Part shown: piece after piece, positions 32,913 to 46,838 of the stretch
How the letters are laid out: each line of letters begins with the position of its first letter
Position numbering within the stretch: the first letter of the stretch is position 1
From: Acidipropionibacterium jensenii DSM 20535
GTDB taxonomy: Bacteria; Actinomycetota; Actinomycetes; Propionibacteriales; Propionibacteriaceae
Reading direction: 5' to 3'
Length of the DNA stretch: 64,000 nt
Assembly: GCF_000425285.1 (NCBI RefSeq)
Contig: NZ_AUDD01000010.1
Span: 1 to 64,000 of the forward strand
Made by a program: the position numbers and the translations under genes
Notes under the pieces: model-generated
Seen by the model: the letters and a program-made list of their open reading frames with translations, nothing else
Databases searched by the model: none
What the model was told of the DNA's origin: nothing

Positions 32913-33737
32913 ATGGAGGATCTGACAGAAGTCTCACCCGCACACCAGGACCCCACCCACCCGGTGAGGCTGTACATCGGCACGCTCACCGAGGCGGCCG
33001 AGTTCGGGGAGGCGACACGCCTCTACCGGCGAACCTTCAACTACGACCTGCCCCAACTCTCCCTCAACGCGAACCTGCTGAGCGCGCTCGGACGCCACGG
33101 CGGCTCCTCGGTCGGGGTGCGCCGCGACACACCGGACGGACCGCTGGTCGGCTTCGCCTACGGCTTCGCGGCCCTGGACCCGGAGACCCACAAGCTGTTC
33201 CACTACTCCCAGGCCGCCGTCGTCGACCCGAGCATGCAGGGCGAGGGGATCGGCCGGATCCTCAAGCTCCGCCAGGCCGAGGTGGCGAGGGACTGGGGAG
33301 CCACGCACATGCGCTGGGGGTACAACCCGCTGTTCGCCCGCAACGCCCACTTCAACCTCGACTCGCTGCGCGGGGTGGGCCGCGAGTTCGTCGTCGACTA
33401 CTACGGCCGCCCGCACAGCGACCGGATGATCGTCGAGTGGAACCTGTCCGAGGACGCCGACCGCTACGCCGACGAGCACGCCCTGACCGTCCCCCCTGAG
33501 CTGGCCGAGGCCGAGCCCGCCGTCGCGGTCCCCGACCAGGACGGCATCTGGATCCCGATCCCCTCCGGGGTGGTCGCCGGGGACGACTCGGAGGAGGGCA
33601 CCGAACCGGTGCGCGACAGGCTCCGTCAGACCCTCTCGGAGGTGATGGGATCGGGTATGGTCCTGGTCTCCTGCCGCCGGCTCGGGGACTCCCTGTCGGT
33701 CTACCGGGCCGTCGAGAGCCGCGGGGGCGCGCTGTGA
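32913..33737 (+). CDS. GNAT acyltransferase of the COG3375-like group
   Basis: The 274-residue protein has an acyl-CoA-binding loop QGEGIGRILKLRQAE and the segment WGYNPLFARNAHFNLDSLRGVGREFVVDYYG, typical of a GNAT subgroup (resembling COG3375) seen beside N-acylamino-acid racemase genes. The expected reaction is transfer of an acyl group, possibly succinyl, from CoA to an amino acid. ATG 32913 is chosen; longer in-frame starts exist upstream. The stop overlaps the next GTG by four bases (GTGA). It is the first gene of a three-gene operon divergent from the M20 gene. Confidence 0.8.
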   Translation: MEDLTEVSPAHQDPTHPVRLYIGTLTEAAEFGEATRLYRRTFNYDLPQLSLNANLLSALGRHGGSSVGVRRDTPDGPLVGFAYGFAALDPETHKLFHYSQAAVVDPSMQGEGIGRILKLRQAEVARDWGATHMRWGYNPLFARNAHFNLDSLRGVGREFVVDYYGRPHSDRMIVEWNLSEDADRYADEHALTVPPELAEAEPAVAVPDQDGIWIPIPSGVVAGDDSEEGTEPVRDRLRQTLSEVMGSGMVLVSCRRLGDSLSVYRAVESRGGAL

Positions 33738-34480
33738 GCCAGTCCGGCGAAGGGGGTCTCAGTACCGATTCCGGCCGGGGACCCTCCAGCCCCCGAGACC
33801 GGATGCTGAGGCTGCGCCCCAATGTCAGCGCCGAGGCCCTCCAGGCCCATCTGGTCGACGCCGAGCGGGCCTCTCTGGAGAGCACCTTCGCCACCCTGGC
33901 CGCCGACTCCAGCCTGTCGCGGGCCGCCGCGCTCATCCTGGCCTCGCGACGCAAGTACATCGCCGGGGCCGGGAAGTCGGCGGCCTACGCGGCCCTGCTC
34001 AACGCCGATCTGGCCGCCACCCTGCCCAATGTGATGCTCATCGGCGCCGGGCTGAGCGCCACCGATGTACTGAGCGACGTCCGCTCCTCCGACGTCTGCG
34101 TGGTCTTCAGCGTGCGCCGCTACCGCGCCGAGACGGTCCGCCTGGGTCGTCTCTTCGCGAGCTCCGGAGGCCATCTGGTGGTCGTCACCGACGATCCCCG
34201 GGCACCTCTGGCTAGCAGCGCCAGTGCCCTCATCCTGGTCGACACCGGATCGGCCTCCTACGCCGACTCCCCCACCGCGATGGCCGCCGTCTGCCATCTG
34301 CTGAGTTCCCTGGCCAGCGCCTCCGCGAAGGGGGCCAGACGCCGTCTGGCCAATCGCGACGTCGTCACCGCCGAGCTGGGCCTCTACTGGGACGAGAGCT
34401 CCGACAGCCTCGAACCCGACGCCGACGGCACGCCTCCGATCATCCATTCCCCCACCGAGGAGAGCGAGAGCATCTCATGA
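33734..34480 (+). CDS. Stand-alone SIS-domain protein (RpiR/MurR-like without DNA-binding domain)
   Basis: The 248-residue protein contains a sugar-isomerase (SIS) domain: ILASRRKYIAGAGKSAAYAALLNADL and DVCVVFSVRRYRAETVRLG followed by HLVVVTDD. RpiR regulators carry an N-terminal helix-turn-helix of about 75 residues; here only about 25 low-complexity residues precede the linker helix, so DNA binding is doubtful. It may sense a ligand or act as an enzyme. It overlaps both neighbours (GTGA upstream, ATGA downstream), showing tight translational coupling. Confidence 0.78.
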   Translation: MSQSGEGGLSTDSGRGPSSPRDRMLRLRPNVSAEALQAHLVDAERASLESTFATLAADSSLSRAAALILASRRKYIAGAGKSAAYAALLNADLAATLPNVMLIGAGLSATDVLSDVRSSDVCVVFSVRRYRAETVRLGRLFASSGGHLVVVTDDPRAPLASSASALILVDTGSASYADSPTAMAAVCHLLSSLASASAKGARRRLANRDVVTAELGLYWDESSDSLEPDADGTPPIIHSPTEESESIS

Positions 34481-35595
34481 GAATCACCCGAGCACGACTC
34501 TTCGAGGTCCGGCTGCCGCTGGTCCACCGGTTCCGGACCAGCTCCCACGCCAAGTCCACCCTCGACCACATCCTCGTGGAGTTCACCGGCGCCGACGGCC
34601 AGGTCGGCTGGGGGGAGATCGCCTCCCCGGCCGGCCCCTTCTACTGCCCCGAGACCACCACGACGGCCTGGGACACCACCATCGCGTTCCTGCTGCCGAC
34701 CGTGCTGGACGCCGACTGGGACCACCCCGAGCAGGTCGACGACCTGTGGCAGCGGGTCCGCGGCCACCGGTTCGCCAAGGCCGGGCTGGTCGGGGCGGCC
34801 TGGGACCTGTGGTGCCGGACCCATGAGGTCTCGCTGGCCGCCAGTCTGGGCGGCACCCGCACCAAGGTGCGCGCCGGCGTCTCACTGGGCATCGAGGCCA
34901 CCATCGACGACCTGCTCGAGCAGGTCGAGCACCAGGTGGCGGCCGGCTACCACCGGGTCAAGCTCAAGATCTCCCACGGCTGGGACCTGGAACCCGTGCG
35001 GGCGGTGCGTTCGGCCTACCCCGACCTGGATCTCCACGTCGACGCCAACGGGGTCTACACCGACGACGACGAGACGATGGCCCACCTGGCCGAGCTGGAC
35101 GCCTTCGGCCTGACCATGATCGAGCAGCCCTTCGCACCGCGCGACCTGCTGGGTCATGCCCGCCTCCAGCAGCGGATCGCCACCGACGTGTGCCTCGACG
35201 AGTCGGTCGAGGACCTCTTCGACCTGGAACTGATGATCTCCCTGAAGGCCGGCCGGGTGCTCAACATCAAGGTCTCCCGGATGGGCGGGCTCACCGTCGC
35301 CCGGGCCGCCCACGAGATGGCCCGCAACGCCGGGATCCCGGTGTGGTGCGGTGGGATGCACGAGTTCGGGATCGGGCGCGCGGCCAATGTCGCGATCTCC
35401 TCGCTGCCGGGATTCACCCTGCCCTCCGACGTCTCCGGGTCGGACAAGTACTACGCCCGCGACGTCATCATCCCGCCGGTGATCGCCGAGGACGGCTGGG
35501 TCCAGGTGCCCACCGCCCCCGGGCTGGGCCACCAGATCGACCTCGAGCAGATCACCTCGAACACCCTGCGGACCTTCGACAGCGCCCAGTCCTGA
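34477..35595 (+). CDS. o-Succinylbenzoate synthase / N-acylamino-acid racemase (enolase superfamily)
   Basis: The 372-residue protein has the full enolase-superfamily active site: the KxK base in HRVKLKISHG, metal ligands in DLHVDANGVY, MIEQPFAP and CLDESVEDL, and the second lysine in NIKVSRMGGL. Members either make o-succinylbenzoate for menaquinone or racemise N-succinyl amino acids. Linkage to an acyltransferase and an M20 hydrolase, and the absence of other men genes nearby, favours the racemase role; this is inference. It is the last gene of the GNAT-SIS-racemase operon. Confidence 0.85.
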   Translation: MRITRARLFEVRLPLVHRFRTSSHAKSTLDHILVEFTGADGQVGWGEIASPAGPFYCPETTTTAWDTTIAFLLPTVLDADWDHPEQVDDLWQRVRGHRFAKAGLVGAAWDLWCRTHEVSLAASLGGTRTKVRAGVSLGIEATIDDLLEQVEHQVAAGYHRVKLKISHGWDLEPVRAVRSAYPDLDLHVDANGVYTDDDETMAHLAELDAFGLTMIEQPFAPRDLLGHARLQQRIATDVCLDESVEDLFDLELMISLKAGRVLNIKVSRMGGLTVARAAHEMARNAGIPVWCGGMHEFGIGRAANVAISSLPGFTLPSDVSGSDKYYARDVIIPPVIAEDGWVQVPTAPGLGHQIDLEQITSNTLRTFDSAQS

Positions 35596-35651
35596 GATCC
35601 TGGCCAGCCCTGAGATCCTGGCCGGAATCGACCGGGATCGGCCGGCCAGAC

Positions 35652-36134
35652 TCAGTCCGCGCTGTGGACCAGGGCGGTGGCGATCGCCGCCACCCCCTCG
35701 CCCCGGCCGGTCAGGCCGAGGTGATCGGTGGTGGTCGCCGAGACCGAGACCGGGGCGCCGACGGTTTCCGAGAGCACCTGCTGGGCCTCCAGACGCCGGG
35801 CCGCCATCCGCGGCCGGTTGCCGATCACCTGGACCGCGACATTGCCCACCCGCCATCCGGCCTCGGCGAGGATCCGCACCGTCTCGGCAAGCAGTGCGAC
35901 GCCGGCGGCACCGGCCCACTCGGGACGGTCGGTGCCGAAGGTCGACCCGAGGTCGCCCAGACCGGCGGCCGACAGCAGGGCGTCGCAGATGGCGTGGGCG
36001 GCTACGTCACCGTCCGAGTGACCCGCCAGCCCGGCCGGTTCATCGGGGAAGGACAACCCGGCCAGGTGCATCCCCACGCCATCCACCAGCTGGTGGACGT
36101 CGGTGCCGATGCCGGTACGGATCTGCGGGATCAT
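35652..36134 (-). CDS. ispF: 2-C-methyl-D-erythritol 2,4-cyclodiphosphate synthase
   Basis: The 160-residue enzyme catalyses the fifth step of the MEP isoprenoid pathway. Zinc ligands lie in GIGTDVHQL and [18 protein letters not shown]; the substrate and product loops are [11 protein letters not shown] and the [17 protein letters not shown] end. The ATG overlaps the stop of ispD by four bases (36131-36134), indicating coupling. Larger in-frame extensions upstream are ispD DNA read in another frame. Confidence 0.96.
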
Positions 36135-36907
36135 CCGCGACGCCGGTGGGAGGGCCGCGGGTCCATCCGGCTCAGCACCCGCCGGACCCGACGTCCGGAG
36201 TGGTGGCCCGCTCCCGCGGTGGCCTTGACCAGGGTCTCGGCGATGTCCAGATCCATCGGCTCGGTGATCTTCAGGGCCATCCGGGACCCCTCGATGAGAC
36301 TCACCCGGTACCCGTACCGTTCGCAGCAGCTCACATCGTCGGTGACCTCGCCGCCCTCGGCGTGCAGCCTGCGGTGGCACTCGGTGATCACCTCGCGGTC
36401 GAATCCCTGCGGGGTCTGCACCGCACGCAGGGTGGACCGGTCGATCACCTCCGAGACGTCGCCGTCGATCTGGCGGATGGTGTCGACCACCGGCACCACC
36501 GGCGTCACCGCGACCGCCCCGTCCTCCAGTGCGGCGAGCACCTGCTTGACGACATAGGCGGGCACCAGGGGGCGCACGGCGTCATGGATGAGGACCTTCC
36601 GGGCCTTCGACAGCCGGGTGCTGGCATCGATGAGCTGGAGGCCGTTGTGCACCGACTCCTGGCGACTCGACCCGCCGGTCGCGAACCGCACCGGGATCGG
36701 CGAGGCCGCCAGGGCCAGCCGGAAGTGGTTGTGCATGCCGTCCTTGACGACCACCACCGCGTCAGTGCACCCGCCGGCGGCCATCGACTCCACGGCGACC
36801 GCCACCACGGCCTTGCCGGTGAGCTCCTGGACCTGTTTGGGCACCGGACCGCCGAATCTGGTGCCGAGGCCGGCGGCCATCACGAGCGCGACCACGGGTT
36901 CTGACAT
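36131..36907 (-). CDS. ispD: 2-C-methyl-D-erythritol 4-phosphate cytidylyltransferase
   Basis: The 258-residue MEP-pathway enzyme transfers CMP to methylerythritol phosphate. It starts [25 protein letters not shown], the nucleotidyltransferase P-loop-like motif, and has [14 protein letters not shown] in the middle and [11 protein letters not shown] near the end. It is followed by ispF. In many actinobacteria carD lies directly upstream; here carD is 6.6 kb away, behind an inserted PTS operon whose first gene is divergent from ispD with only 65 bases between. Confidence 0.95.
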
Positions 36908-36972
36908 GATCGTGACTCTATCGTCGCGGCGGCTAGCCTGGCGGCGTGATCGACGACCCGGGGGAGACGCAG

Positions 36973-37707
36973 ATGTCACCAGCCGTCACGGCTCCGTTCC
37001 TCATCATCAACGTGAAGGCCTACCTGTACGGCGATCAGGCCCTGAGGCTCGCTCGGATCGCCGACGGCCTGAGCCGCGATGCCGACGTCGACATCATGTT
37101 CGCCGTTCAGCACGCCGACATCCGGCTCATCGCCGAGCACACCGACAGGCTCATCGTCGTCGCACAGCACATGGACCCCATCGCACCCGGACGCGGGATG
37201 GGACACATCCTGCCCGAGTCACTCGCGGCGGCGGGGGCGCGCGCCGTGATTCTCAACCATGCCGAGCACCCGCTCACCGTCGCCGATCTGGACGCCGATC
37301 TGGTGCGCGCCCGCGAGGTCGGCCTCAGCACCGTTGTCTGCGCCGACTCCATCGCCCAGTGCCAGATGATCGCACGGCTGGGACCCGACGTCATGATCTG
37401 CGAACCCTCCTCGCAGATCGGCAAGGGCACGCTCACCACTGACGACTACATCCGGGACTCCACGACCGCCGTCAAGGAGGTCGATCCCTCCATCATGGTG
37501 CTCCAGGGAGCGGGCGTGTCCACCGGCGAGGACGTGGCCAGGGTGCTTGCGCTGGGAGCTGACGCCTCGGGCGGCACCAGCGGCATCGTGTGCGCCCCGG
37601 ACTGGAGCGGCACCGTCTCGGAGATGCTGATTCCGCTGCGAGCCGAGAAGGATCGCAGAAGCCAGTCCGCGCCACCCTCAGGGCCTCCCCTGCAGCACCT
37701 CCGATAA
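36973..37707 (+). CDS. Archaeal-type triose-phosphate isomerase family protein
   Basis: The 244-residue TIM barrel aligns by eye with archaeal triose-phosphate isomerases rather than the usual bacterial form: [56 protein letters not shown] and [10 protein letters not shown]. Catalytic Asn13, Lys15, His96 and Glu144 are present. Loop 6 reads EPSSQIGKG instead of EPxxxIGTG, hinting at a changed substrate. Being in a PTS operon with a GpsA-like dehydrogenase, it may isomerise a ketose phosphate such as dihydroxyacetone or erythrulose phosphate. ATG 36973 has GGGGAG upstream. Confidence 0.82.
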
Positions 37708-37917
37708 GGGGCCTCCGACAGTGGCACGATGTGCGCGACGCTCCCGTCGGGCATCAAGGGACGTCGGAGACGCTGAGTGTCATGACCAGCAACGAGAACG
37801 GCTCCGGACCAGGGCGTGGCCGATGGATCTCCGCCCGGCAGCCCTGGTACCGCGGCACCTCTCTGCTCATACAGTGAGAGCCCGCAGACACATGACCGAT
37901 GGCCGCGAAGGAATGCG

Positions 37918-38862
37918 ATGGCGCGCAGAAGCAGGGACGAGCACCTCATCCAGGTGCTGCACGTCGCCGAGATGTACTACTTCGAGCAGATGACCCAGTC
38001 GGCGATCGCCGACCGGCTGTCGCTGAGTCGCTGGACGGTGGGACGGATGTTGGAGTCGGCCCGCGAGTCGGGCCTGGTGCACATCACCATCGACCATCCG
38101 CTGGCCCGCCACCACCGTCTGGAGGTGGAGCTCGCCAGCCGCTTCGGGCTGGCCAAGGCGGTCGTCGTCCCCACCCAGGCGCGCCCCGAGAGCACCCTGG
38201 ACGTCATCGCCTCGGCCGCCGCCGACCGTCTCACCATGCTGCGTCCGGCCCCCTCCGTGATCGGGGTGAGCTGGGGCCGCACCCTCGCCCAGGTCGCCCG
38301 GCACCTGCACCCCGGATGGGCCCACGACATCACCGTCGTGCAGACCAATGGCGGGGTGGCGATCACCCGCAACGACCTGGTCGGGCGGTCGGTGGTGCGG
38401 ATCGCCGAACTGGGACGGGGACGGGCGATCACCCTGCAGGCCCCCACCATCCTGGGGTCGGCCGAACTGTGCTCCATGCTGCGCGCCGACGCCGCGGTGG
38501 CGCGCACCCTGCAGATGGCCTCCCACGCGGACCTGCTGATCTACTCCCCCGGACCGCCCGACGCCGGTTCAGTGCTGGTCGGGTCGGGACACCTGAGCGC
38601 CGACGACATGACCAGACTGCGCGCTGCCGGCGGGCGGGCCGATGTGATGAGCCACGTGGTGGACTCCACGGGGGCCCCGGTCGACCCGGATCTGGACGCC
38701 CGCACCCTCTCGATGGATCTGGACGCCGTCCGCAGCGCCCCCCGGGTGATCGCGGTGGCCGCCGGGATGGAGAAGGCCGAGGCCACCGGGGCCGCCCTGG
38801 CCGGGGGCCTGTGCACCGAGGTGGTCACCGACTCCGAGGTCGCCGAGGCCATCCTGTCCTGA
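37918..38862 (+). CDS. SorC/DeoR-like sugar-binding transcriptional regulator
   Basis: The 314-residue protein has an N-terminal helix-turn-helix (EMYYFEQMTQSAIADRLSLSRWTVGRMLESARESGLV) followed by a SorC-type sugar-phosphate-binding domain with VIGVSWGRTLAQVARHL, ITVVQTNGGVA and ADLLIYSPGPPDAGSVLVGSGHLS. Such regulators bind a phosphorylated sugar and control neighbouring catabolic genes. It lies between the TIM gene and the dehydrogenase/PTS genes and is the probable local regulator. ATG 37918 gives the family start MARRSRDEHLIQVLHVAEMY. Confidence 0.9.
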   Translation: MARRSRDEHLIQVLHVAEMYYFEQMTQSAIADRLSLSRWTVGRMLESARESGLVHITIDHPLARHHRLEVELASRFGLAKAVVVPTQARPESTLDVIASAAADRLTMLRPAPSVIGVSWGRTLAQVARHLHPGWAHDITVVQTNGGVAITRNDLVGRSVVRIAELGRGRAITLQAPTILGSAELCSMLRADAAVARTLQMASHADLLIYSPGPPDAGSVLVGSGHLSADDMTRLRAAGGRADVMSHVVDSTGAPVDPDLDARTLSMDLDAVRSAPRVIAVAAGMEKAEATGAALAGGLCTEVVTDSEVAEAILS

Positions 38863-39230
38863 TCCCCCGCCCCCTGGGGAGCGACCGCCACCTACTCCGG
38901 CCTGCCCACCGGGCTGGGCCTGATTCCCCGCCCCCGGGGAGCGACTCTGCGACCCCGCTCTCCCCGGCCACCCCGGAAAAGCTGCTCAGACCCCGCATTA
39001 CCCAACAAATGACCTCTTGATCCCACATCTGTGCAGGACGCTGTCACAGCGGGACAGCGGGAAGGCCGCAGCATTAGCGTCGAACCATCGGTTCGACCCG
39101 GTCCGCCTCAGCATCGTCGCTGGCCGCGCCGAACAGCACCGGGCACCACCATCCCGGATCACATCACGGCGACGCACACCGGACGGCAGACCGTCCCCCA
39201 GCTGTGTGCGCCCTCAGGAGAAGGAGAATC
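38863..39230 (+). other. 368-bp gap between SorC regulator and dehydrogenase gene
   Basis: No gene is supported here. The first part has two related stretches, TGATCCCCCGCCCCCTGGGG and TGATTCCCCGCCCCCGGGG, about 60 bases apart. A short inverted pair GCTGTC/GACAGC occurs near 39040-39058 within a slightly AT-richer region that probably contains the promoter and SorC operator of the dehydrogenase/PTS genes. No confident -35/-10 could be placed. Confidence 0.4.
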
Positions 39231-40289
39231 ATGGCGAAGATTGCAGTACTCGGCGCGGGGATCATGGCGACGGCCCTCACCTTCCCGGCCGCCGACAACG
39301 GCAACGTCATCAACCTCATCGGCACCCACCTCGATGACGAGATCATCGACTCCATCAAGGCCGACGGCACCCACCCGGTGCTCGGCCTCAAGGTCCCCGA
39401 GACCGTCAAGGCCTTCTACTTCACCGAGGCGGCCGAGGCCGTCAAGGACGCCGACATCATCATGAGCGGGGTCAACTCCTTCGGCGTCGAGTGGGCCGGC
39501 GAGCAGCTGGCCAAGCTGGCCCGTCCCGGCCAGATCATCCTGTCGATCACCAAGGGGATGCGCGCCGACGAGGACGGCACCCTCCACATCCTCCCCGACG
39601 TCCTCAAGGCCAAGATGGGTCCGCTGGCCGACCAGGTCGACTGGGCGGCCATCGTCGGCCCGTCCATCGCCGGCGAGCTCGCCGTCCACCACCTCACCTG
39701 CGTCACCTTCTGCGCCGAGAAGCAGGAGATCGCCGAGAAGCTGGCCGCGCTGTACCGCACCGACTACTACCACGTGTGGACCTCCACCGACTTCATCGGC
39801 AACGAGGTCGGCTCCTGCATGAAGAACATCTTCGCCTTCGGCGGCGGATTCGCCCCCGGCATGCTCAAGAAGATGGGCAAGGAGAACGACAAGTACGTCA
39901 TGTACAACTACGCCGCCGCGCTGTTCGGCGAGGGCGCCCGCGAGCTCAAGCAGATGGTCGTGCTGATGGGCGGGGACCCGCTGGTCACCGAGAACCTCGG
40001 CGGCGTCGGCGACATGTTCGTCACCACGATGGGCGGGCGCAATGTGCGCGCCGGCACCTACGTCGGCGAGGGCGTGCCCTTCTCCGAGATCCGCAACGTC
40101 AAGATGAAGGGGGTCACCCTCGAGGGTGTCGCCGCCATCGGCGTGGTCGGCGAGGCCGTCGAGAAGCTGACCGACCGCGGCGTCATCTCCGCCGACGACT
40201 TCCCGCTGGTCCGCGCCCTCTACCGGATCGTCGCCCACGACGCCCCGCTGGATCTGCCGTGGAGCACCTTCTTCGGCGGGGAGCGCTGA
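39231..40289 (+). CDS. GpsA-like NAD(P)-dependent glycerol-3-phosphate dehydrogenase family protein
   Basis: The 352-residue protein has an N-terminal Rossmann motif VLGAGIMATAL, then ILSITKGM, IVGPSIAGELAV and the catalytic-lysine segment GNEVGSCMKNIFAFGGG (Lys198), as in glycerol-3-phosphate dehydrogenase. In biosynthesis GpsA reduces dihydroxyacetone phosphate. In this PTS operon, with a TIM-like isomerase, it may run in the oxidative direction on a polyol phosphate; that is inference. ATG 39231 has AGGAGAAGGAGAA upstream. Confidence 0.85.
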   Translation: MAKIAVLGAGIMATALTFPAADNGNVINLIGTHLDDEIIDSIKADGTHPVLGLKVPETVKAFYFTEAAEAVKDADIIMSGVNSFGVEWAGEQLAKLARPGQIILSITKGMRADEDGTLHILPDVLKAKMGPLADQVDWAAIVGPSIAGELAVHHLTCVTFCAEKQEIAEKLAALYRTDYYHVWTSTDFIGNEVGSCMKNIFAFGGGFAPGMLKKMGKENDKYVMYNYAAALFGEGARELKQMVVLMGGDPLVTENLGGVGDMFVTTMGGRNVRAGTYVGEGVPFSEIRNVKMKGVTLEGVAAIGVVGEAVEKLTDRGVISADDFPLVRALYRIVAHDAPLDLPWSTFFGGER

Positions 40290-40311
40290 CCCTCCAACCC
40301 ACCGGCCGGAT

Positions 40312-40346
40312 CTCGCCAGGGGCGGCATGTCTCTGGTGAGATCGTC
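40312..40346 (+). terminator. Hairpin between dehydrogenase gene and PTS IIB gene
   Basis: GATCTCGCCAG and CTGGTGAGATC pair (one G-U) across about 13 bases, roughly 25-55 bases after the dehydrogenase stop. It could end or attenuate the transcript before the PTS genes. The rest of the 285-bp gap contains no recognised gene. Confidence 0.45.
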
Positions 40347-40574
40347 CGGTCCACAATAGGGTCTGCGAGGTGACCGCGACTCACGGTCGCCTCGGCCCCA
40401 TCGGGCGACGCAGGTCCGCCTGCACATGAGTGCAGACTGGGTCAGGAAATATTCACAGGCGGCGATCCTCTCACCGAGAATTGCCACCGCCGGAGTCGGG
40501 GTGTGCTACGCATCCCGCATGCGTGAGGATGCCCCACCCGGAGCAGCCTTCACCGATCAAAGGAGACGGACAGA

Positions 40575-40868
40575 ATGGTCAGCAAGAAGGTTCTGGTCTG
40601 CTGTGGCACCGGTATCGCCACATCAGTGCAAGTTGCCAACAAGCTTCAGCGCCTGCTGAAGGACCGCGGCATCAACGCGACGATGAAGGAGTGCAAGGCG
40701 GTGGAGGTTCCGGCCCAGACCGCAGCGTTCAAGCCCGACGCCATCGTCTCGACCACCGTCGTCAAGTCCCCCGCGGAGGGCATCAAGGTCTACCGCGGAG
40801 TCGCATTCCTCACCGGCGTCGGCGCCGACAAGCTCGCCGACGAGATCGCAGCAGATCTCAAGGGCTGA
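40575..40868 (+). CDS. gatB: PTS galactitol-family IIB component
   Basis: The 97-residue protein begins MVSKKVLVCCGTGIATSVQVANK. The cysteine before GTGIATS (Cys10) is the phosphorylation site of GatB-like IIB proteins. It passes phosphate from IIA to the sugar carried by IIC. A GGAGACGG site lies before the ATG. The IIC gene follows after 121 bases that contain a hairpin. The true substrate may not be galactitol; the symbol reflects family only. Confidence 0.88.
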   Translation: MVSKKVLVCCGTGIATSVQVANKLQRLLKDRGINATMKECKAVEVPAQTAAFKPDAIVSTTVVKSPAEGIKVYRGVAFLTGVGADKLADEIAADLKG

Positions 40869-40930
40869 GTCCAGCCCACCGCAGCGGAGCCGCCACTAGC
40901 CCTGGCAGCACCACTGTCCACACATGAAAA

Positions 40931-40963
40931 AGGGTCCCCGGCCCTAGCCCGGCCGAGGACCCT
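40931..40963 (+). promoter_or_regulatory. Intercistronic hairpin between PTS IIB and IIC genes
   Basis: A 13-bp stem with one mismatch (AGGGTCC-C-CGGCC paired with GGCCG-A-GGACCCT) closes a 7-base loop 26 bases upstream of the IIC start. No T tract follows, so it is more likely an mRNA-processing or stability element that lets the soluble IIB be made in excess over IIC than a full terminator. Confidence 0.5.
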
Positions 40964-40989
40964 CATGACAGAAGAAAGAACCTTCCATC

Positions 40990-42477
40990 ATGGGAACAGT
41001 CACTACCGTCATCCAGTACATCTTGGGTCTGGGCGCCAGTGTGGTCCTACCGATCATTATATTCCTGCTCAGCCTGTTCTTCCGGATGAAGCCCGGCAAG
41101 GCCATCCGCGCAGCGCTGACGATCGGCATCGGATTCATCGGCATCAACCTCGTCATCGGCCTGCTCGGCAGCACGCTGGGGCCCGCCGCCCAGCGCATGA
41201 TCGAGAACACCGGCCTCAACCTGCCGATCATCGACGCCGGCTGGCCGGTCGCCGCGGCGATCTCCTTCGGCACCGCGAAGGTGGTGCCGTGGATCTTCGT
41301 CCTCGGCATCGCCATCAACCTCGCCATGATCGGCCTGAGGTGGACCACCACCCTCAACGTCGACATGTGGAACTTCTGGCACTTCATCTTCTCGTCGGCC
41401 TTCGTCTACATCGCGACCGGCAACTTCTGGCTCGGCCTGGCGGTCGGCCTCATCACCCTGGTCATCGTCCTCAAGCTGGCCGACATCTGCGCGCCGATCA
41501 TCCAGGACTACTACAAGATCCCCGGCGTCACGACGGCCCACACCGACACCGTCTCGTGGGCCCCGGTCGGCTGGTGCATCAACAAGGTCCTCGACCACGT
41601 CCCCGGCTTCCGACACAACAAGATGACCCCGGACTACGTCCAGGAGAAGTTCGGCTCGTGGGCCGAGCCGATGGTGATGGGCACCATCCTCGGTGGCGTC
41701 ATCGGTCTGCTGGCCTACTTCCCCGACCTCACCGGGGGCGCCTGGGGCAGCGGCATCAAGGGGATCGTCACGGTGGCCATCTCGATGGGCGCCGTGATGC
41801 TCCTGCTGCCGCGCATGGTGGCCCTGCTGATGGAGGGACTCATCCCGCTGTCGGACTCCGCCCAGGAGTGGATCAAGGCCCGCTACCCCGACCGTGAGCT
41901 CAACATCGGGCTGGACGCCGCCATCCTGGTCGGCTACCCGGCCAACATGTCGGTGGCCATCATCCTGGTCCCGATCACCCTGGCCCTCGGCGTCCTGATG
42001 AGCTACGCCCACCTCAACCAGATGCTGCCCTTCACCGACCTCGCCGACACCCCGTTCTTCGCCGTCTGGGCGACGACATGGTGCCGGGGCAATATCGCCA
42101 GAGGCACCGTGATCGGCACCTTCTTCGTCGCCTGCATGCTCACCATCGGCACCTTCATGGCGCCGGCCACCACGATCCTCGCCCACCAGGCGAACTTCAC
42201 CATCCCGCAGGGCGCCAGCCAGATCTCCTCGATCGACTCGGGGGCCCACCTGATCGCATACTTCTTCGCCTTCTTCTTCGTCTTCGGACAGGCGAAGGCC
42301 TACGGCACCGCGTTCATCGTCTTCAGCATCATCCTGCTCACCATCGCCGTGGTCTGCTACGTCGTCTTCTTCGCCCACGTGCTGCGCGGCGGCAAGCCGG
42401 GCATGGAGGACCGCGAGCGGTACATGACCAAGGAGGAGCTGCAGGCCGAGGCCGAGGCCGCCGAGGCGGGGTGGTGA
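40990..42477 (+). CDS. gatC: PTS galactitol-family IIC component (sugar channel)
   Basis: The 495-residue membrane protein has about a dozen hydrophobic segments. It starts MGTVTTVIQYILGLGASVVLPIIIFLLSLFFRMKPGKAIRAAL, the typical GatC/SgcC beginning, with later conserved stretches GLNLPIIDAGWPVAAAISF and NVDMWNFWHFIFSSAFVY. It transports and phosphorylates a polyol-like substrate with IIA and IIB. At 495 residues it is longer than many GatC proteins, with a charged C-terminal tail. The small gene 42481-42897 follows three bases after its stop. Confidence 0.88.
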   Translation: MGTVTTVIQYILGLGASVVLPIIIFLLSLFFRMKPGKAIRAALTIGIGFIGINLVIGLLGSTLGPAAQRMIENTGLNLPIIDAGWPVAAAISFGTAKVVPWIFVLGIAINLAMIGLRWTTTLNVDMWNFWHFIFSSAFVYIATGNFWLGLAVGLITLVIVLKLADICAPIIQDYYKIPGVTTAHTDTVSWAPVGWCINKVLDHVPGFRHNKMTPDYVQEKFGSWAEPMVMGTILGGVIGLLAYFPDLTGGAWGSGIKGIVTVAISMGAVMLLLPRMVALLMEGLIPLSDSAQEWIKARYPDRELNIGLDAAILVGYPANMSVAIILVPITLALGVLMSYAHLNQMLPFTDLADTPFFAVWATTWCRGNIARGTVIGTFFVACMLTIGTFMAPATTILAHQANFTIPQGASQISSIDSGAHLIAYFFAFFFVFGQAKAYGTAFIVFSIILLTIAVVCYVVFFAHVLRGGKPGMEDRERYMTKEELQAEAEAAEAGW

Positions 42478-42480
42478 CCG

Positions 42481-42897
42481 ATGGTTGAGTCCATGCTCGA
42501 CATGACCCTGGGTCACTGGTGGCGGTCCGTGATCGCCTTCTACCTGGCCCACTTCACCTGGATCGTCGTTCCACTGGTGGCCTGGATGGCGGTCATCGTC
42601 ATCGCTCACCGGGTCATCAAGGACGCCAAGCAGGCCATGCGGGCGACCCTCATCGCGATGCCCAACGGCCGGATCGCCCCGGAGAAGGTGCTGCGCAAGC
42701 GGTTGCTCCCGGTGATCCGCGAGCGGGCCGCCCAGCACCGCTGGATGCCCGCCGGTCCCGGAGGCATCTGGATCCGGCGCTGCCGCCCAGACGATGTGGT
42801 CGCCCAGATGACGAAACTGCCGAACTACCTCATCCGGTTCCGCGACCAGCAGTTCGGGACCTCGGCCGGGCGTCGTCGCCGGTCCCTGGCCCGCTGA
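42481..42897 (+). CDS. Unknown small membrane protein in the PTS operon
   Basis: The 138-residue protein has one strong hydrophobic segment (about residues 18-42, IAFYLAHFTWIVVPLVAWMAVIVIAH), then a basic region with KRLLPVIRERAAQHRWMPAGPGGIW and IRRCRPDDVVAQM and a very basic C terminus. I recognise no family. It begins three bases after the IIC stop, so it is surely co-transcribed, and lies between IIC and IIA. It might be a IIC partner or stabiliser; nothing proves this. Confidence 0.75.
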   Translation: MVESMLDMTLGHWWRSVIAFYLAHFTWIVVPLVAWMAVIVIAHRVIKDAKQAMRATLIAMPNGRIAPEKVLRKRLLPVIRERAAQHRWMPAGPGGIWIRRCRPDDVVAQMTKLPNYLIRFRDQQFGTSAGRRRRSLAR

Positions 42898-42962
42898 CGG
42901 CGTCTGTTGCGAACCGCGTGTTCTGCACCTCAACCCCAGCACTTCCAAGGAAACTGATCATC

Positions 42963-43430
42963 ATGTCCGAAGCTCCCCGTTTCATCGTCGTCGATGCCGA
43001 CACCGACTCCCAGAGCGAGCTGTACGCCACCGTCAACTCCCGGCTGCTCGAGGAGGAGGCGGTCCGCGACTCCTTCCTGGACGCCGTGAGCGCCCGCGAG
43101 AAGAAGTACCCGACCGGCCTCGACTTCGGCCACTGCCAGGTGGCCATCCCCCACATCGACCCCGAGCACGTCATCACCCCCGGGGTCCTGGTCTGCCGCA
43201 ACGCCCAGCAGACGCCGTTCCGGGCGATGGACGATCCCGACCGGGAGCTGTCGGTGCGGCTGTCGATCTGGCCCCTGGTCACCGACCCGCACAACCAGAT
43301 GGACATGCTCGGGGCCGTGATCTCGCTGCTCCAGGAGGACTCCTCCTGCCAGCGTCTGCTCACCGCCGACCCCACCGAGCTGCCCGAGATCCTGGCCGGC
43401 GTCCTGAAGGCCGTCGGCCAGCAGGAGTGA
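42963..43430 (+). CDS. gatA: PTS fructose/mannitol-galactitol-family IIA component
   Basis: The 155-residue IIA protein has its active histidine in CQVAIPHIDPEHV (His64). It receives phosphate from HPr and hands it to IIB. The FLDAVSAREKKYPTGLDFG stretch preceding the histidine is typical of GatA-like IIA. ATG 42963 was chosen; the frame upstream is antisense or out-of-frame DNA. It is the last gene of the operon, followed by a strong hairpin terminator. HPr and enzyme I are encoded at 48841-50786. Confidence 0.9.
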   Translation: MSEAPRFIVVDADTDSQSELYATVNSRLLEEEAVRDSFLDAVSAREKKYPTGLDFGHCQVAIPHIDPEHVITPGVLVCRNAQQTPFRAMDDPDRELSVRLSIWPLVTDPHNQMDMLGAVISLLQEDSSCQRLLTADPTELPEILAGVLKAVGQQE

Positions 43431-43469
43431 ACGCCACAACACCGCTGGCATGAGCTCCCGGAACAGACA

Positions 43470-43507
43470 GGCCGAGGGCCCCACGGATGTCCGTGGGGCC
43501 CTCGGCC
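43470..43507. terminator. Hairpin terminator between PTS operon and carD
   Basis: Arms 43470-43487 and 43490-43507 are perfectly complementary (GGCCGAGGGCCCCACGGA and its complement), about 40 bases after the IIA stop. It probably ends the PTS operon and, being symmetric, also the convergent carD transcript. Confidence 0.8.
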
Positions 43508-43553
43508 GTATCAGTTGTTCAGTACGAGTTCGTACCGGGAGCTGCCGCTCAGC

Positions 43554-44039
43554 TCAGGAGGCCAGAACCTCGTCGAGCATCTCCTCGGCCTTGCCCTCCT
43601 CGACCTTCTCGGCGAGCGCGAGCTCGGAGACGAGAATCTGACGAGCCTTGGAGAGCATCCGCTTCTCACCGGCAGACAGGCCGCGATCGCGCTCACGACG
43701 CCACAGGTCGCGAACCACCTCGGAGACCTTGATGATGTTGCCGCTGTGGAGCTTCTCGGTGTTGGCCTTGTACCGGCGGGACCAGTTGGTGGGCTCCTCG
43801 ACCTGCGTCTTGCGCAGCACGTCGAAGACCTTCTCGAGGCCCTTCTCGTCCACGACGTCACGAACACCGACGAGATCCAGGTTGCACGCCGGCACCCTGA
43901 CAACCAGGTCGTTCTGTCCGATGATCCTCAGAACGAGGTACAGCTTCTCCTCGCCCTTGATGGTCCGGGTCTCGAGATCCTCGATGACCGCCGCCCCGTG
44001 ATTGGGATAAACAACCGTTTCGCCGACGTTAAAAGTCAT
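43554..44039 (-). CDS. carD: CarD family RNA polymerase-binding transcription factor
   Basis: The 161-residue protein has an N-terminal RNA-polymerase-interacting Tudor-like domain ([21 protein letters not shown]...KLYLVLRI) and a helical DNA-binding C-terminal domain ([13 protein letters not shown]...[21 protein letters not shown]). CarD stabilises open promoter complexes and is essential in mycobacteria. ATG 44039 with GAAAGGGG upstream is preferred over a TTG six codons earlier. In related bacteria ispD follows; here the PTS operon intervenes. Confidence 0.95.
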
Positions 44040-44063
44040 GTACGCAACCCCTTTCAAGGGTCG

Positions 44064-44092
44064 ATTCTACCATGAGAATGCCCTGAGAGGAA
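44064..44092 (-). promoter_or_regulatory. carD: Candidate carD promoter
   Basis: On the minus strand TAGAAT (44069-44064) is a good -10 hexamer about 25 bases before the carD start; the hexamer 17 bases further upstream (TTCCTC) is a weak -35. CarD-dependent promoters often have poor -35 elements. The rest of the gap to 44420 contains no recognised gene. Confidence 0.35.
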
Positions 44093-44420
44093 GATGTCGC
44101 ACCTAGTCACCGGCGACTCCACCCTATACCGAGGAGTTGACTTCCGGCCAAATCTGTGGGTCGCGGCCTGTCGCGGACCGGTATTGCCGCGCTGACTAGG
44201 TGTGGGACGCCGCGTCCTTGACGGCGGCCCGCTGCTGGCGACCGGGCGCCGGGACGGGCGGGCGCCGACGGCGTTCGTGGTCGGAGACCGGCTCGTCGGG
44301 CGGTCCTCCGGCAGGCTGCGGGCCGGCACCTCGAGCGCGAGCAAACGCACCCCCGACCGGTCCCTGAATCCGATAGGCTCTGGCCGGGACATTGAGGACT
44401 CGACCAGCCAGGAGACGAGC

Positions 44421-44927
44421 ATGATCAGCGCGAGCAGGTTCCGGAGCCGCACGGTTCTGCTGGTGACGGCCGGGGCCCTGCTGGCCACCACCGCGGTGGG
44501 GTGCAGCCAGGAGCCCAAGGTGATCCGCCCCTACACCCCGGCGGCCGGGGTGAGCGGCGCCAACGACACCGTCAAACTGCGCAACATCGTCCTGGTCGCC
44601 CAGGGTGGTCAGGCCCGGCTGTCCGGGATGGCGGTCGCCAGCGCCGACGACGCCATCACCGGGGTCACCGGCAACGCCCTCAAGCCGGACAACTCGGTCG
44701 CCGCGGCTCTGGCCCCCAGCACCACCCGGGTGCCCCTCACCCGGCAGACCTCCGTCAACCTCACCGACGCCGGGATCCAGGTCTCCTCCCCCAAGCTCAC
44801 CGAGGGTCTGCTGGCCTCGGTCACCATCACCTTCAGCCAGGGCGAGCCGATCACCCTCCAGACGCCGGTGGTCTCGGCCTCCCACGCGGACTTCTCCCCC
44901 GCGGCGCCGACCCCCACCCACTCCTGA
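44421..44927 (+). CDS. lpqE: LpqE-like lipoprotein
   Basis: The 168-residue protein has a signal sequence ending in the lipobox TTAVGC (Cys28), then a beta-rich domain with VKLRNIVLVAQGGQARLSGMAV and VTITFSQGEPITLQTPVVSA. It resembles the LpqE group of actinobacterial lipoproteins, which lies divergent from carD in mycobacteria as it does here. The function is not established. AGGAGACG precedes ATG 44421. The frame continues upstream without support. Confidence 0.72.
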   Translation: MISASRFRSRTVLLVTAGALLATTAVGCSQEPKVIRPYTPAAGVSGANDTVKLRNIVLVAQGGQARLSGMAVASADDAITGVTGNALKPDNSVAAALAPSTTRVPLTRQTSVNLTDAGIQVSSPKLTEGLLASVTITFSQGEPITLQTPVVSASHADFSPAAPTPTHS

Positions 44928-44997
44928 GCCGCGCCCCGCAGGACCTCGGCAGAGCTGGGAGTCCCGGGACCGGGAAGTCCTCAGAACTGGGCAGTCC

Positions 44998-45672
44998 TCA
45001 GTCGAACTTGTAGCCCAGTCCCCGCACCGTGATCACCCGCACCGGGTGGGACGGGTCAGCCTCGATCTTGCCGCGCAGCCGCTTGATGTGGACGTCGAGG
45101 GTCTTGGTGTCCCCGACGTAGTCGTTGCCCCAGACCAGGTCGATGAGCTGGCCGCGGGTCATCACCCTCCCCGCGTTGCGCAGCAGCACCTCCAGCACCT
45201 CGAACTCCTTGAGGGCTAGGGACACCTCGGCCCCGTCGACGGTCACCTCGTGGCGCTCCACGTCCATCCGCACGCCGCCCTCCTCGAGGATGTCGTCGAC
45301 CGCCTCCTGGTCGTGGCCGCGTCTCAGCACCGCGCGGATCCGGGCCACCAGCTCGCGGTGGCTGAACGGCTTGGTGACGTAGTCGTCGGCCCCCAGCTCC
45401 AGGCCGACCACCTTGTCGATCTCGGAGTCGCGGGCGGTGACCATGATGATCCCGACATTGCCGCGGGCCCTCAGCTGGCGGCAGACATCGGTGCCGGGCA
45501 TCCCCGGCATCATGAGGTCCAGCAGCACGATGTCGGCCCCCGCGGCGTCGTACTCGGCGAGCCCGGCCAGGCCGTCGGCGGCCTCCACCACCTCGAACCC
45601 CTCCTTGCGCAGCATGTAGGCAGTGGCGTCGCGGTAGGACTCCTCGTCCTCGATGATCAGCACTCGGGTCAT
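44998..45672 (-). CDS. regX3: OmpR-family response regulator RegX3
   Basis: The 224-residue regulator has a receiver domain (VLIIEDEESYRD, phosphoacceptor Asp in VLLDLMMPGMPG, conserved Lys in YVTKPFSHRELVARI) and a C-terminal winged helix (LALKEFEVLEVLLRNAGRVMTRGQLIDLVWG...VDVHIKRLRGKIE type). With SenX3 it controls the phosphate-starvation response in actinobacteria. Its start overlaps the kinase gene stop by four bases (45669-45672). A PHO-box-like repeat near phoU is a probable target. Confidence 0.93.
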   Translation of the reverse strand: MTRVLIIEDEESYRDATAYMLRKEGFEVVEAADGLAGLAEYDAAGADIVLLDLMMPGMPGTDVCRQLRARGNVGIIMVTARDSEIDKVVGLELGADDYVTKPFSHRELVARIRAVLRRGHDQEAVDDILEEGGVRMDVERHEVTVDGAEVSLALKEFEVLEVLLRNAGRVMTRGQLIDLVWGNDYVGDTKTLDVHIKRLRGKIEADPSHPVRVITVRGLGYKFD

Positions 45673-46838
45673 GACGTCTCCTCGGAGGATGGGTGGTGCA
45701 TCGGAAATCGAAGGGTGAAGGTGGAGCCCTGCCCGACCTTGCTCCAGACCGACACCGATCCGCCGTGCACGCGGGCGGTGTGCTTGACCAGGGACAGGCC
45801 CAGGCCGGTGCCGCCGCTGGCCCGGGAGCGCGCCTGGTCGACCCGGTAGAAGCGCTCGAAGATCCGCTTCTGGTCGTCCTGGCTGATCCCGATCCCGTTG
45901 TCGGTGACGGCGATCTCGACGACCCGCAGGTCGCCCTCCCGGCCCTCCCGGGTGATCACCGAGACCCGCGCCCGGGGTCCGGAGTAGGCGATCGCGTTCT
46001 GGACGAGGTTCGCCACCGCGTCGATGAGCGGGCCGGGATCGCCCATCACGGTGAGTCCGGGGGCGCAGCGCACCACCAGATTGATGTGCCGGGAACGGGC
46101 CAGCTCGTCCATCCGGTGGACGGCCTTGTGCACCACCTCGGAGACGTCGGTCGGCTCGGCGCGCAGCAGCGGCTGGTCGGACTGAAGTCGCGACAGGGCG
46201 ATCACCTGGGTCACCAGGCTGGACAGCCGGACGGCCTCGGTGTGCAGCCGGGTGGCGAAGTGCCGCACCGCGTCAGGATCGTCGGCGGCGTCCTCCACCG
46301 CCTCGGCGAGGATCGAGACGGCGCCGATCGGCGTCTTCAACTCGTGGCTCACATTGGCCAGGAAGTCGTTGCGGGCCTGTTCGACGCGGATCATCGCGCT
46401 GCGGTCGTCGGCGAGCACCAAGGCGCTGCCGTGCTCATCCATCGGTGCCGCGCGGACCACCATGTGGAGCACCGGGACGCTCGGGTTGGGCCGCACGTCG
46501 AGATCCTGGACCTCGGTCTGCTCCTCGCGCCGGCAGCGGCGGACCATGTCGAGCAGTTCGGGGTCGACGATCCGGGAGCCCTCGACCAGTCCGATGGAGA
46601 TGGCCTGCTCGGTGGCGTAGAGCACCTCGTCATGGTCCCCGACGACGATGCCGGGTCCGTTGCGCAGATCGAGGGCGCTGATCAGGGTCGGGTCGACCTC
46701 CGGCTCCCAGGTGTCGGTGTCCAGGGTGTCGGGAGGGTTGCGTGCCGCGCTGACGGTGCGCTCGATGAGCCATGTCAGGGCCGCTCCGACCACCAGGCCG
46801 ATCAGCCCTGCCAACCACCAGTTCACAGCCCAGATCAT
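45669..46838 (-). CDS. senX3: Sensor histidine kinase SenX3
   Basis: The 389-residue kinase has an N-terminal membrane segment (WWLAGLIGLVVGAALTWLIE), a PAS-like domain (about residues 60-150), the dimerisation/phosphoacceptor motif FLANVSHELKTPIGAVSILAEAV, and ATPase boxes VANLVQNAIAYSG, VTDNGIGISQDD and GTGLGLSLVKH. It phosphorylates RegX3. The gene is divergent from phoU, with a 168-bp shared control region containing three 11-bp GTTC repeats. Confidence 0.93.
   Translation of the reverse strand: MIWAVNWWLAGLIGLVVGAALTWLIERTVSAARNPPDTLDTDTWEPEVDPTLISALDLRNGPGIVVGDHDEVLYATEQAISIGLVEGSRIVDPELLDMVRRCRREEQTEVQDLDVRPNPSVPVLHMVVRAAPMDEHGSALVLADDRSAMIRVEQARNDFLANVSHELKTPIGAVSILAEAVEDAADDPDAVRHFATRLHTEAVRLSSLVTQVIALSRLQSDQPLLRAEPTDVSEVVHKAVHRMDELARSRHINLVVRCAPGLTVMGDPGPLIDAVANLVQNAIAYSGPRARVSVITREGREGDLRVVEIAVTDNGIGISQDDQKRIFERFYRVDQARSRASGGTGLGLSLVKHTARVHGGSVSVWSKVGQGSTFTLRFPMHHPSSEETS

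What the first reader, a model, noticed from the sequence alone, without database searches (positions are those of the whole stretch)
36973..43430. PTS operon with archaeal-type TIM, GpsA-like dehydrogenase and unknown small protein: candidate short-chain polyol pathway
Seen: on one strand lie an archaeal-type triose-phosphate isomerase homologue (catalytic Asn13, Lys15, His96, Glu144 present, loop 6 altered), a SorC regulator, a GpsA-like dehydrogenase, galactitol-family PTS IIB, IIC and IIA, and a small unknown membrane protein. Known: PTS IIC proteins of this family carry polyols; SorC regulators bind sugar phosphates; propionibacteria classically ferment erythritol. Inference: the PTS phosphorylates a C3-C4 polyol, the dehydrogenase oxidises it to a ketose phosphate, and the TIM-like enzyme isomerises it. 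No kinase or aldolase gene is in the operon, so the product would enter central metabolism directly. Glycerol, erythritol or threitol would be candidates.
Basis: partly seen in the sequence, partly recalled or inferred. Interest (0 to 1): 0.8.

Follow-up and report, generated by a model that had tools for sequence, protein, structure and literature searches.

The report
PTS and dehydrogenase for short polyols
A propionic-acid bacterium carries a co-regulated sugar-alcohol importer and oxidising enzyme that probably feed a four- or five-carbon sugar alcohol such as erythritol into central metabolism, which offers candidate genes for a fermentation known for decades without known genes.

Summary
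The set is a mosaic of three modules. (1) SorC and the GpsA-like dehydrogenase sit, in Cutibacterium and Rubrobacter, beside a polyol-kinase cluster; the window genome carries that cluster separately on contig C6, preceded by a Zn alcohol dehydrogenase and a DAK kinase. (2) IIB-IIC-membrane protein-IIA is a galactitol-type PTS, unlinked in two Cutibacterium species, yet there a palindrome TGCACNNNNGTGCA precedes both it and the dehydrogenase. The dehydrogenase also adjoins PTS genes in three further genera, once a glucitol-type PTS. (3) The archaeal-type TIM comes from another operon (TIM-aldolase-YjbQ) and is not required with the dehydrogenase. Best reading: the PTS makes a polyol phosphate, the GpsA-like enzyme oxidises it next to the phosphate, and the ketose 1-phosphate (for a tetritol, L-erythrulose 1-phosphate) enters the pentose-phosphate pathway through C6 enzymes. 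In this genome the window TIM is the only non-glycolytic TIM, so it could fill the missing L-erythrulose-1-phosphate isomerase slot; this is inference. Pentitols remain a serious rival. Reader partly supported. New variant of a known kind; it makes the unsolved gene basis of erythritol fermentation in propionibacteria testable.

The parts
36973..37707 (+). archaeal-type triose-phosphate-isomerase homologue (244 aa), candidate ketose-phosphate isomerase
   Evidence: tree
37816..38862 (+). SorC-family regulator (start not settled; ATG at 37918 is the alternative)
39022..39035 (.). operator-like half-conserved palindrome CCCACATCTGTGCA upstream of the dehydrogenase
   Evidence: at 2 mismatches not above chance in the window alone, supported only by conservation across species
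39231..40289 (+). GpsA-family polyol-phosphate dehydrogenase (352 aa)
40421..40434 (.). exact operator-like palindrome TGCACATGAGTGCA upstream of IIB
   Evidence: 3 exact sites in the 3.03-Mb genome, 0 for the reversed pattern
40575..40868 (+). PTS IIB, lactose/galactitol type
40990..42477 (+). PTS IIC, EIIC-GAT family
42481..42897 (+). small membrane protein, conserved with this PTS, no known family
42963..43430 (+). PTS IIA (EIIA-2 type)

Best explanation
A SorC-controlled short-polyol system. The galactitol-type PTS (IIB, IIC, IIA) imports and phosphorylates a polyol; the GpsA-family dehydrogenase oxidises the carbon next to the phosphate with NAD(P), as GpsA does with glycerol 3-phosphate. 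For a tetritol (erythritol or L-threitol) the product is L-erythrulose 1-phosphate. The window TIM shifts the carbonyl to give D-erythrulose 4-phosphate; RpiB and transketolase of the C6 cluster finish the route to erythrose 4-phosphate and the pentose-phosphate pathway. The C6 Zn dehydrogenase and DAK kinase would reach the same L-erythrulose 1-phosphate without the PTS. Shown by sequence: gene content, homology, conserved motifs, shared operator-like sites, the C6 cluster, only two TIM-family genes in the genome. Inferred: every substrate, every reaction, and the TIM's part. The confidence given is for PTS plus GpsA-like acting on a tetritol; the TIM step alone is nearer 0.3.
For: The 17 GpsA-like orthologues used form one supported group (99/99) apart from the GlpK-paired GpsA of the genus; they stand beside polyol kinase genes in four Cutibacterium loci and two Rubrobacter plasmids; TKG, KN, GxGD and GRN motifs are kept (roles recalled). 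PTS linkage recurs: SorC-GpsA diverges from IIA-IIB-IIC in G152 and from membrane protein-IIA in G099 and G100, and GpsA-like runs with a PRD regulator, GutM-like protein, glucitol-type PTS and AraM-like gene in L244 and L247. The exact palindrome precedes GpsA in 4 of 4 Cutibacterium loci (L021-L024) and IIB in the window, A. thoenii, G002 and the unlinked PTS of C. porci and C. namnetense. A second SorC gene shares such a site with a glpF-glpK-like pair (pair named by eye). GpsA-like and the FGGY kinase co-occur in 30 of 198 family genomes, 9.9 expected, kinship uncorrected. C6: ZnADH, DAK, DeoR, RpiB, permease, HAD, FGGY, AraM, AraB, AraD, Tkt; G153 has DAK, EryH-like TIM, DeoR, RpiB there. 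Two TIM-family genes in the window genome. TIM dN/dS 0.22-0.35 between window and four relatives. Erythritol via L-erythrulose 1-phosphate in P. pentosaceum: title of a 1968 paper cited in PMC4437456 and PMC10733421 (the paper itself not seen).
Against: TIM is not tied to GpsA: absent with GpsA present in 4 Cutibacterium and 2 Rubrobacteraceae genomes; co-occurrence 10 of 198 against 6.3 expected, p 0.06. Archaeal-type TIM and a further non-glycolytic canonical-family TIM of intermediate score coexist in G150, G151, G027, G019 and G136, so it is not simply a substitute. No operator-like site (up to 2 mismatches) lies upstream of TIM in the window. IIC and the membrane protein are missing between IIB and IIA in G001 and G004, which keep GpsA. 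G153, probably P. freudenreichii (a species that ferments erythritol), has no GpsA-like at E 1e-60, no archaeal-type TIM, and no Zn dehydrogenase in the stretch read. G004 has DAK and GpsA-like but no extra TIM (86% complete). AraB/AraD in the C6 cluster point to pentuloses. An aldolase that cleaves L-erythrulose 1-phosphate was suggested for P. pentosaceum (PMC10733421) and would bypass TIM. 4 of 17 GpsA-like loci have neither a labelled polyol gene nor SorC beside them.
Confidence: 0.4

Rival explanations
1. Pentitol route: the PTS and GpsA-like enzyme handle D-arabitol, L-arabitol or ribitol phosphate; the pentulose phosphate is passed to AraD/transketolase; TIM is unrelated.
For: GpsA-like lies beside AraB/AraD in G029 and AraB in G150 and G151, and with AraB-Tkt in Cutibacterium, where no DAK was seen near the cluster and no extra TIM in the genomes. 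All Acidipropionibacterium strains tested ferment D-arabitol while none of 21 P. freudenreichii strains does (PMC6920887, PMC4437456, passages); the probable P. freudenreichii genome lacks GpsA-like.
Against: GpsA-type chemistry oxidises the carbon next to the phosphate (recalled), giving a pentulose 1-phosphate that AraD and Tkt do not use. A SorC paralogue with the same kind of operator site sits by glpF-glpK-like genes. The P. freudenreichii identity of G153 is inferred from size and genus only.
Confidence: 0.32
2. Glycerol: the GpsA-like enzyme is a second glycerol-3-phosphate dehydrogenase and the PTS takes up glycerol or a relative; TIM is an auxiliary glycolytic isozyme.
For: Pfam places both enzymes in the glycerol-3-phosphate dehydrogenase and TIM families; a SorC paralogue sits by glpF-glpK-like genes.
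Against: The genome already has a glpF-glpK-like pair, a GlpK-like kinase with its own GpsA and a glycolytic TIM. GpsA-like is below the cut-off of every NCBIfam GpsA model listed and forms its own group.
Confidence: 0.12
3. Chance neighbours (not exclusive of the PTS/GpsA reading): TIM is a remnant of the TIM-aldolase-YjbQ-glucitol PTS operon at the carD-ispD locus, without a role in the PTS/GpsA pathway.
For: That operon occupies the same locus in other genera. Its DRL-like gene has no match in the window genome, while TIM persists.
Against: TIM is intact with catalytic residues and dN/dS within the range of its neighbours, and is kept beside SorC-GpsA in G002 too (L033).
Confidence: 0.4

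Closest known systems
Rhizobial erythritol operon (eryABCD, tpiB/eryH, rpiB/eryI; L137)
   Same: SorC-type regulator, polyol-phosphate dehydrogenase and a TIM-family plus RpiB isomerase logic
   Different: PTS instead of kinase plus ABC transporter at this locus; GpsA-type instead of GlpD-type dehydrogenase; archaeal-type instead of EryH-type TIM; RpiB on another contig
Tetritol pathway EltD, LerK, LerI, DerI (passages in PMC10733421; M. smegmatis origin from a cited title)
   Same: The C6 cluster has a Zn dehydrogenase, a DAK-family kinase and RpiB; that EltD and LerK are of those families is recalled
   Different: No further canonical-family TIM in the window genome; extra PTS/GpsA entry; activities untested
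Galactitol PTS operon (gat)
   Same: EIIC-GAT family permease with IIA and IIB of that type
   Different: Scores below the galactitol NCBIfam cut-offs; no GatD, GatY or GatZ gene among the seven; extra membrane protein
PTS(Gat)-FbaII-TIM-YjbQ operons on Lactobacillales plasmids
   Same: Archaeal-type TIM (51-52% identical) with a Gat-type PTS
   Different: They have an aldolase and YjbQ and no GpsA-like dehydrogenase annotated beside them

Membership tests
Archaeal-type TIM subfamily (NCBIfam PRK04302) | profile score above curated cut-off | tested here: met
   187 bits against 132
Archaeal-type TIM subfamily (NCBIfam PRK04302) | catalytic Asn, Lys, His, Glu | tested here: met
   N13, K15, H96, E144
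[quoted passage not shown]
   window TIM lies in a separate bacterial group (98/99); EryH rows lie in the canonical group (100/100)
[quoted passage not shown]
   needs assay
GpsA (NAD(P)H-dependent glycerol-3-phosphate dehydrogenase, NCBIfam models) | score above a curated cut-off | tested here: not met
   best 158.4 bits against 257
NAD-dependent glycerol-3-phosphate dehydrogenase superfamily | both Pfam domains and the Lys/Asp/Arg-Asn motifs | tested here: met
   77.4 and 70.6 bits; motifs
Galactitol PTS | TIGR00827, PRK10310, PRK09665 cut-offs | tested here: not met
   375.4 vs 542.2; 40.4 vs 95; 73.8 vs 139 bits
EIIC-GAT permease family | Pfam EIIC-GAT cut-off | tested here: met
   288.8 vs 24.2 bits
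SorC regulator family | Sugar-bind domain | tested here: met
   174 bits

The most novel reading that the evidence does not exclude
A PTS-driven tetritol fermentation: erythritol or L-threitol is phosphorylated on entry, oxidised by a GpsA-family (not GlpD-type) tetritol-phosphate dehydrogenase, and an archaeal-type TIM has replaced the EryH/LerI isomerase by non-orthologous displacement, joining a Zn-dehydrogenase/DAK-kinase branch at L-erythrulose 1-phosphate.
Probability: 0.27. Interest if true: 0.7.

Novelty: new variant of a known kind. Interest (0 to 1): 0.5.

Why it matters
Authors who sequenced 21 P. freudenreichii strains reported that all ferment erythritol and adonitol but that they could not reconstruct either pathway (PMC4437456, passages). 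The C6-type cluster, read in Acidipropionibacterium, Cutibacterium and the probable P. freudenreichii genome, together with this window set, gives candidate genes for each step. No paper naming an erythritol or threitol PTS was found in the held open-access library with five phrases; most subscription papers are not held.

Tried and rejected
Whole-set conservation (TIM next to SorC-GpsA-Gat PTS): rejected; among the loci read it holds only in the window and G002.

TIM as a member of the EryH/TpiB group: rejected by tree.

Strict mutual exclusion of archaeal-type TIM and EryH-like TIM: rejected.

FGGY kinase of C6 as an orthologue of EryA: not supported, 24-25% identity.

YjbQ literature for a function clue: listing only, nothing used. 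Rfam: no match at gathering score in 34000-46000. Membrane protein fold: AlphaFold2 mean pLDDT 73.7 with 3 sequences, best PDB match E 2.0. Operator at up to 2 mismatches in the window alone: 21 found, 33 expected, so uninformative by itself. First GpsA tree contained a wrong-frame row (L015) and was rebuilt without it. Promoter scan: 1 found, 0.5 expected.

Recounted, 12 of 17 have one; the odds for PTS plus GpsA as a pair went from 0.75 to 0.85 for that reason.
Full report
Observation. The seven genes exist at the stated coordinates and strand. The TIM is closest to archaeal TIMs with solved structures, and Asn13, Lys15, His96 and Glu144 are present. The gaps before GpsA and IIB are long, so several transcription units are likelier than one operon. 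Upstream lie ispD-ispF, downstream carD, on the other strand (by eye).

Names. G222-G225 hold the Cutibacterium loci L021-L024 (avidum, porci, modestum, namnetense); I take G107, G112, G110 and G111 for the same genomes. G002 (3.65 Mb) is taken for A. acidipropionici, G001 (3.43 Mb) for A. virtanenii, G106 for C. acnes and G153 (2.65 Mb, one contig, genus with two 3.0-Mb members) for P. freudenreichii, all by size and kinship only, not verified.

Module 1, SorC-GpsA. Orthologues of the dehydrogenase (49-93% identity) occur in 48 of 198 genomes of the family, own included (E at most 1e-60), and in 21 of 396 drawn from the phylum, own included (E at most 1e-50). In four Cutibacterium loci the genes run FGGY kinase, AraM-like, AraB, transketolase, SorC, GpsA-like; DeoR, RpiB, permease and HAD-IIA precede the kinase in the three of these clusters re-read (G222, G111, G112). 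On two Rubrobacter plasmids the outline is Zn dehydrogenase, DAK-family kinase, HAD-IIA, AraM-like, RpiB, FGGY kinase, GpsA-like, GlpD-like, with further genes between. In G029 GpsA-like follows AraB and AraD. Of 17 GpsA-like loci fetched and read have a labelled polyol gene (FGGY, AraM, AraB, HAD-IIA, RpiB or a PTS subunit) in the stretch, one has only SorC (L238), and four have none (L237, L239, L240, L241). Of the five earlier relatives outside Acidipropionibacterium whose stretches extend both ways (G014, G020, G023, G027, G029), only G029 has such a gene right beside GpsA. The 17 orthologues used in the tree form one group (99/99) apart from the GlpK-paired GpsA. GpsA-like and the FGGY kinase (E at most 1e-130) co-occur in 30 genomes of 198, 9.9 expected, Fisher p 2e-14, without correction for kinship.

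The window genome has the kinase cluster on contig C6: Zn dehydrogenase (divergent), DAK kinase, a gene on the other strand, DeoR, RpiB, permease, HAD-IIA, FGGY kinase, AraM-like, AraB, AraD, transketolase. No GpsA-like is there; it is in the window.

Module 2, the PTS. An orthologous IIC (83-93% identity) is in 6 of 12 genomes tested, own included (window, G002, A. thoenii, A. timonense, C. porci, C. namnetense), and all 6 have GpsA-like; the other 6 have GpsA-like without this IIC. In C. porci and C. namnetense it stands apart as IIB-IIB-IIC-membrane protein-IIA. In G001 and G004 IIB and IIA remain while IIC and the membrane protein are gone from between them; their best other IIC is 34-35% identical (G004 is 86% complete). 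Linkage of GpsA-like to PTS genes recurs outside: SorC-GpsA is divergent from IIA-IIB-IIC (35, 38, 40% identical) in G152 and from membrane protein-IIA (36, 45-50%) in G099 and G100, where no IIB or IIC was found in the stretch; and in G091 and G070 (L244, L247) GpsA-like, a PRD-type regulator, a GutM-like protein, a glucitol-type PTS and an AraM-like gene run in one direction, with the glucitol PTS and AraM also near in L246 (regulator and GutM by eye). I read this as strong support for a PTS-fed dehydrogenase.

Regulation. TGCACNNNNGTGCA stands exact upstream of IIB in the window (40421), A. thoenii and G002, upstream of the second IIB gene of the unlinked PTS in C. porci and C. namnetense, and upstream of GpsA in all four Cutibacterium loci L021-L024, also in G106 and twice before SorC-GpsA in L238. 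Before GpsA in six Acidipropionibacterium-type loci only the right half is kept well. No site with 0 or 1 mismatch was seen by GpsA in L019, nor in G099, G100 or G152. The window genome holds 3 exact sites and 0 for the reversed pattern; over the 10 genomes 42 sites against 7 (each palindrome once). One further site lies between a second SorC gene and a glpF-glpK-like pair. No site lies near TIM in the window.

Module 3, TIM. In the family, 30 of 198 genomes match the TIM at E at most 0.001; 26 remain after dropping four weak matches (G103, G117, G155, G215). Of 17 TIM neighbourhoods fetched, 11 have both the class II aldolase and YjbQ, three have one of them, three neither (L065, L070, L071); eight of the 11 also show glucitol-type PTS genes. 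Lactobacillales plasmids have PTS(Gat)-aldolase-TIM-YjbQ; Shinella has SDR, a TIM-barrel protein, TIM, YjbQ, FGGY kinase. A. thoenii and G001 carry TIM, YjbQ and aldolase and, near by, the glucitol set and the GpsA/PTS set; A. timonense carries TIM and GpsA 32 kb apart. DRL has no match in the window genome, G002 and G004. TIM thus looks like an independent module that stayed after partners were lost. Its dN/dS of 0.22-0.35 against four relatives lies within the range of the other genes (0.10-0.44 against the window).

Why TIM may still belong. In G153 the C6-type cluster reads DAK, EryH-like TIM (45% to the rhizobial EryH), DeoR, RpiB. In G000-G004 and A. timonense the Zn dehydrogenase and DAK are present (6 of 6) but no canonical-family TIM beside the glycolytic one (0 of 6); archaeal-type TIM is present in 5 of 6, the miss being G004. 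Of the 9 genomes with DAK within about 12 kb of the cluster, 8 have an extra TIM of either kind; in five Cutibacterium clusters no DAK was seen and their genomes have only the glycolytic TIM. Against it, G027 and G058 have extra TIMs without DAK near the cluster, G150 and G151 have both TIM kinds, and DAK was not searched genome-wide. The lineages are few and related, so this is a hint, not a proof.

Literature. Passages seen: PMC4437456 (erythritol and adonitol fermented by 21 of 21 P. freudenreichii strains, pathways not reconstructed; D-arabitol by none), PMC6920887 (table footnote: all strains tested positive on glycerol, erythritol, adonitol, D- and L-arabitol), PMC10733421 (EltD, LerK, LerI, DerI, and the suggestion that P. 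pentosaceum cleaves L-erythrulose 1-phosphate by an aldolase), PMC3599248 (ery loci), PMC7650540 (nothing on these polyols). Recalled: P. pentosaceum as a synonym of A. acidipropionici, the roles of the GpsA motifs, the names EryA-I for locus L137, the families of EltD and LerK. The aldolase route would bypass TIM and is a further point against the isomerase step.

Verdict. PTS plus GpsA-like as a polyol-phosphate pair: about 0.85. Tetritol with TIM in the pathway: about 0.3. Pentitol: about 0.3.

Noticed in passing
L062 (G062), L064, L066, L067, L068: A recurrent operon, in L062 between carD and ispD: TIM, class II aldolase, YjbQ (UPF0047), glucitol-type PTS, GutM-like, DRL-like (SAF-domain, named by eye) oxidoreductase, SorC; pathway unknown.
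   Followed up: partly
L105, L106, L107, L108: Archaeal-type TIM beside YjbQ in all four plasmid contexts read: with aldolase (and Gat PTS in two) in Lactobacillales, with FGGY kinase in Shinella; YjbQ's role there is unexplained.
   Followed up: partly
G000 contig C6, L127:205-15300: Candidate erythritol/pentitol cluster: ZnADH, DAK, DeoR, RpiB, unnamed permease-like protein, HAD-IIA, FGGY kinase, AraM-like, AraB, AraD, transketolase.
   Followed up: yes
L244:1878-8834 and L247: GpsA-like in one run with a PRD-type regulator, GutM-like protein, glucitol-type PTS and AraM-like gene: a second kind of PTS paired with this dehydrogenase.
   Followed up: partly
L034 and L019: IIC and the membrane protein are missing between IIB and IIA in G001 and G004 while the soluble subunits stay.
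   Followed up: partly
L248 (G106): SorC and GpsA-like match in several pieces in different frames, as if decayed, in the genome taken for C. acnes.
   Followed up: no
window 40930-40964: Strong hairpin between IIB and IIC (-26.4 kcal/mol over 61 nt, z -4.9), possibly setting the IIB/IIC ratio.
   Followed up: no
L158:5814-10713 and L155: A second Gat-type PTS with a GlpK-like kinase and GpsA in G002; in the window genome kinase and GpsA were found without it.
   Followed up: partly
window 33734-35595: SIS-domain-like protein followed by an enolase-superfamily-like protein, read by eye only.
   Followed up: no
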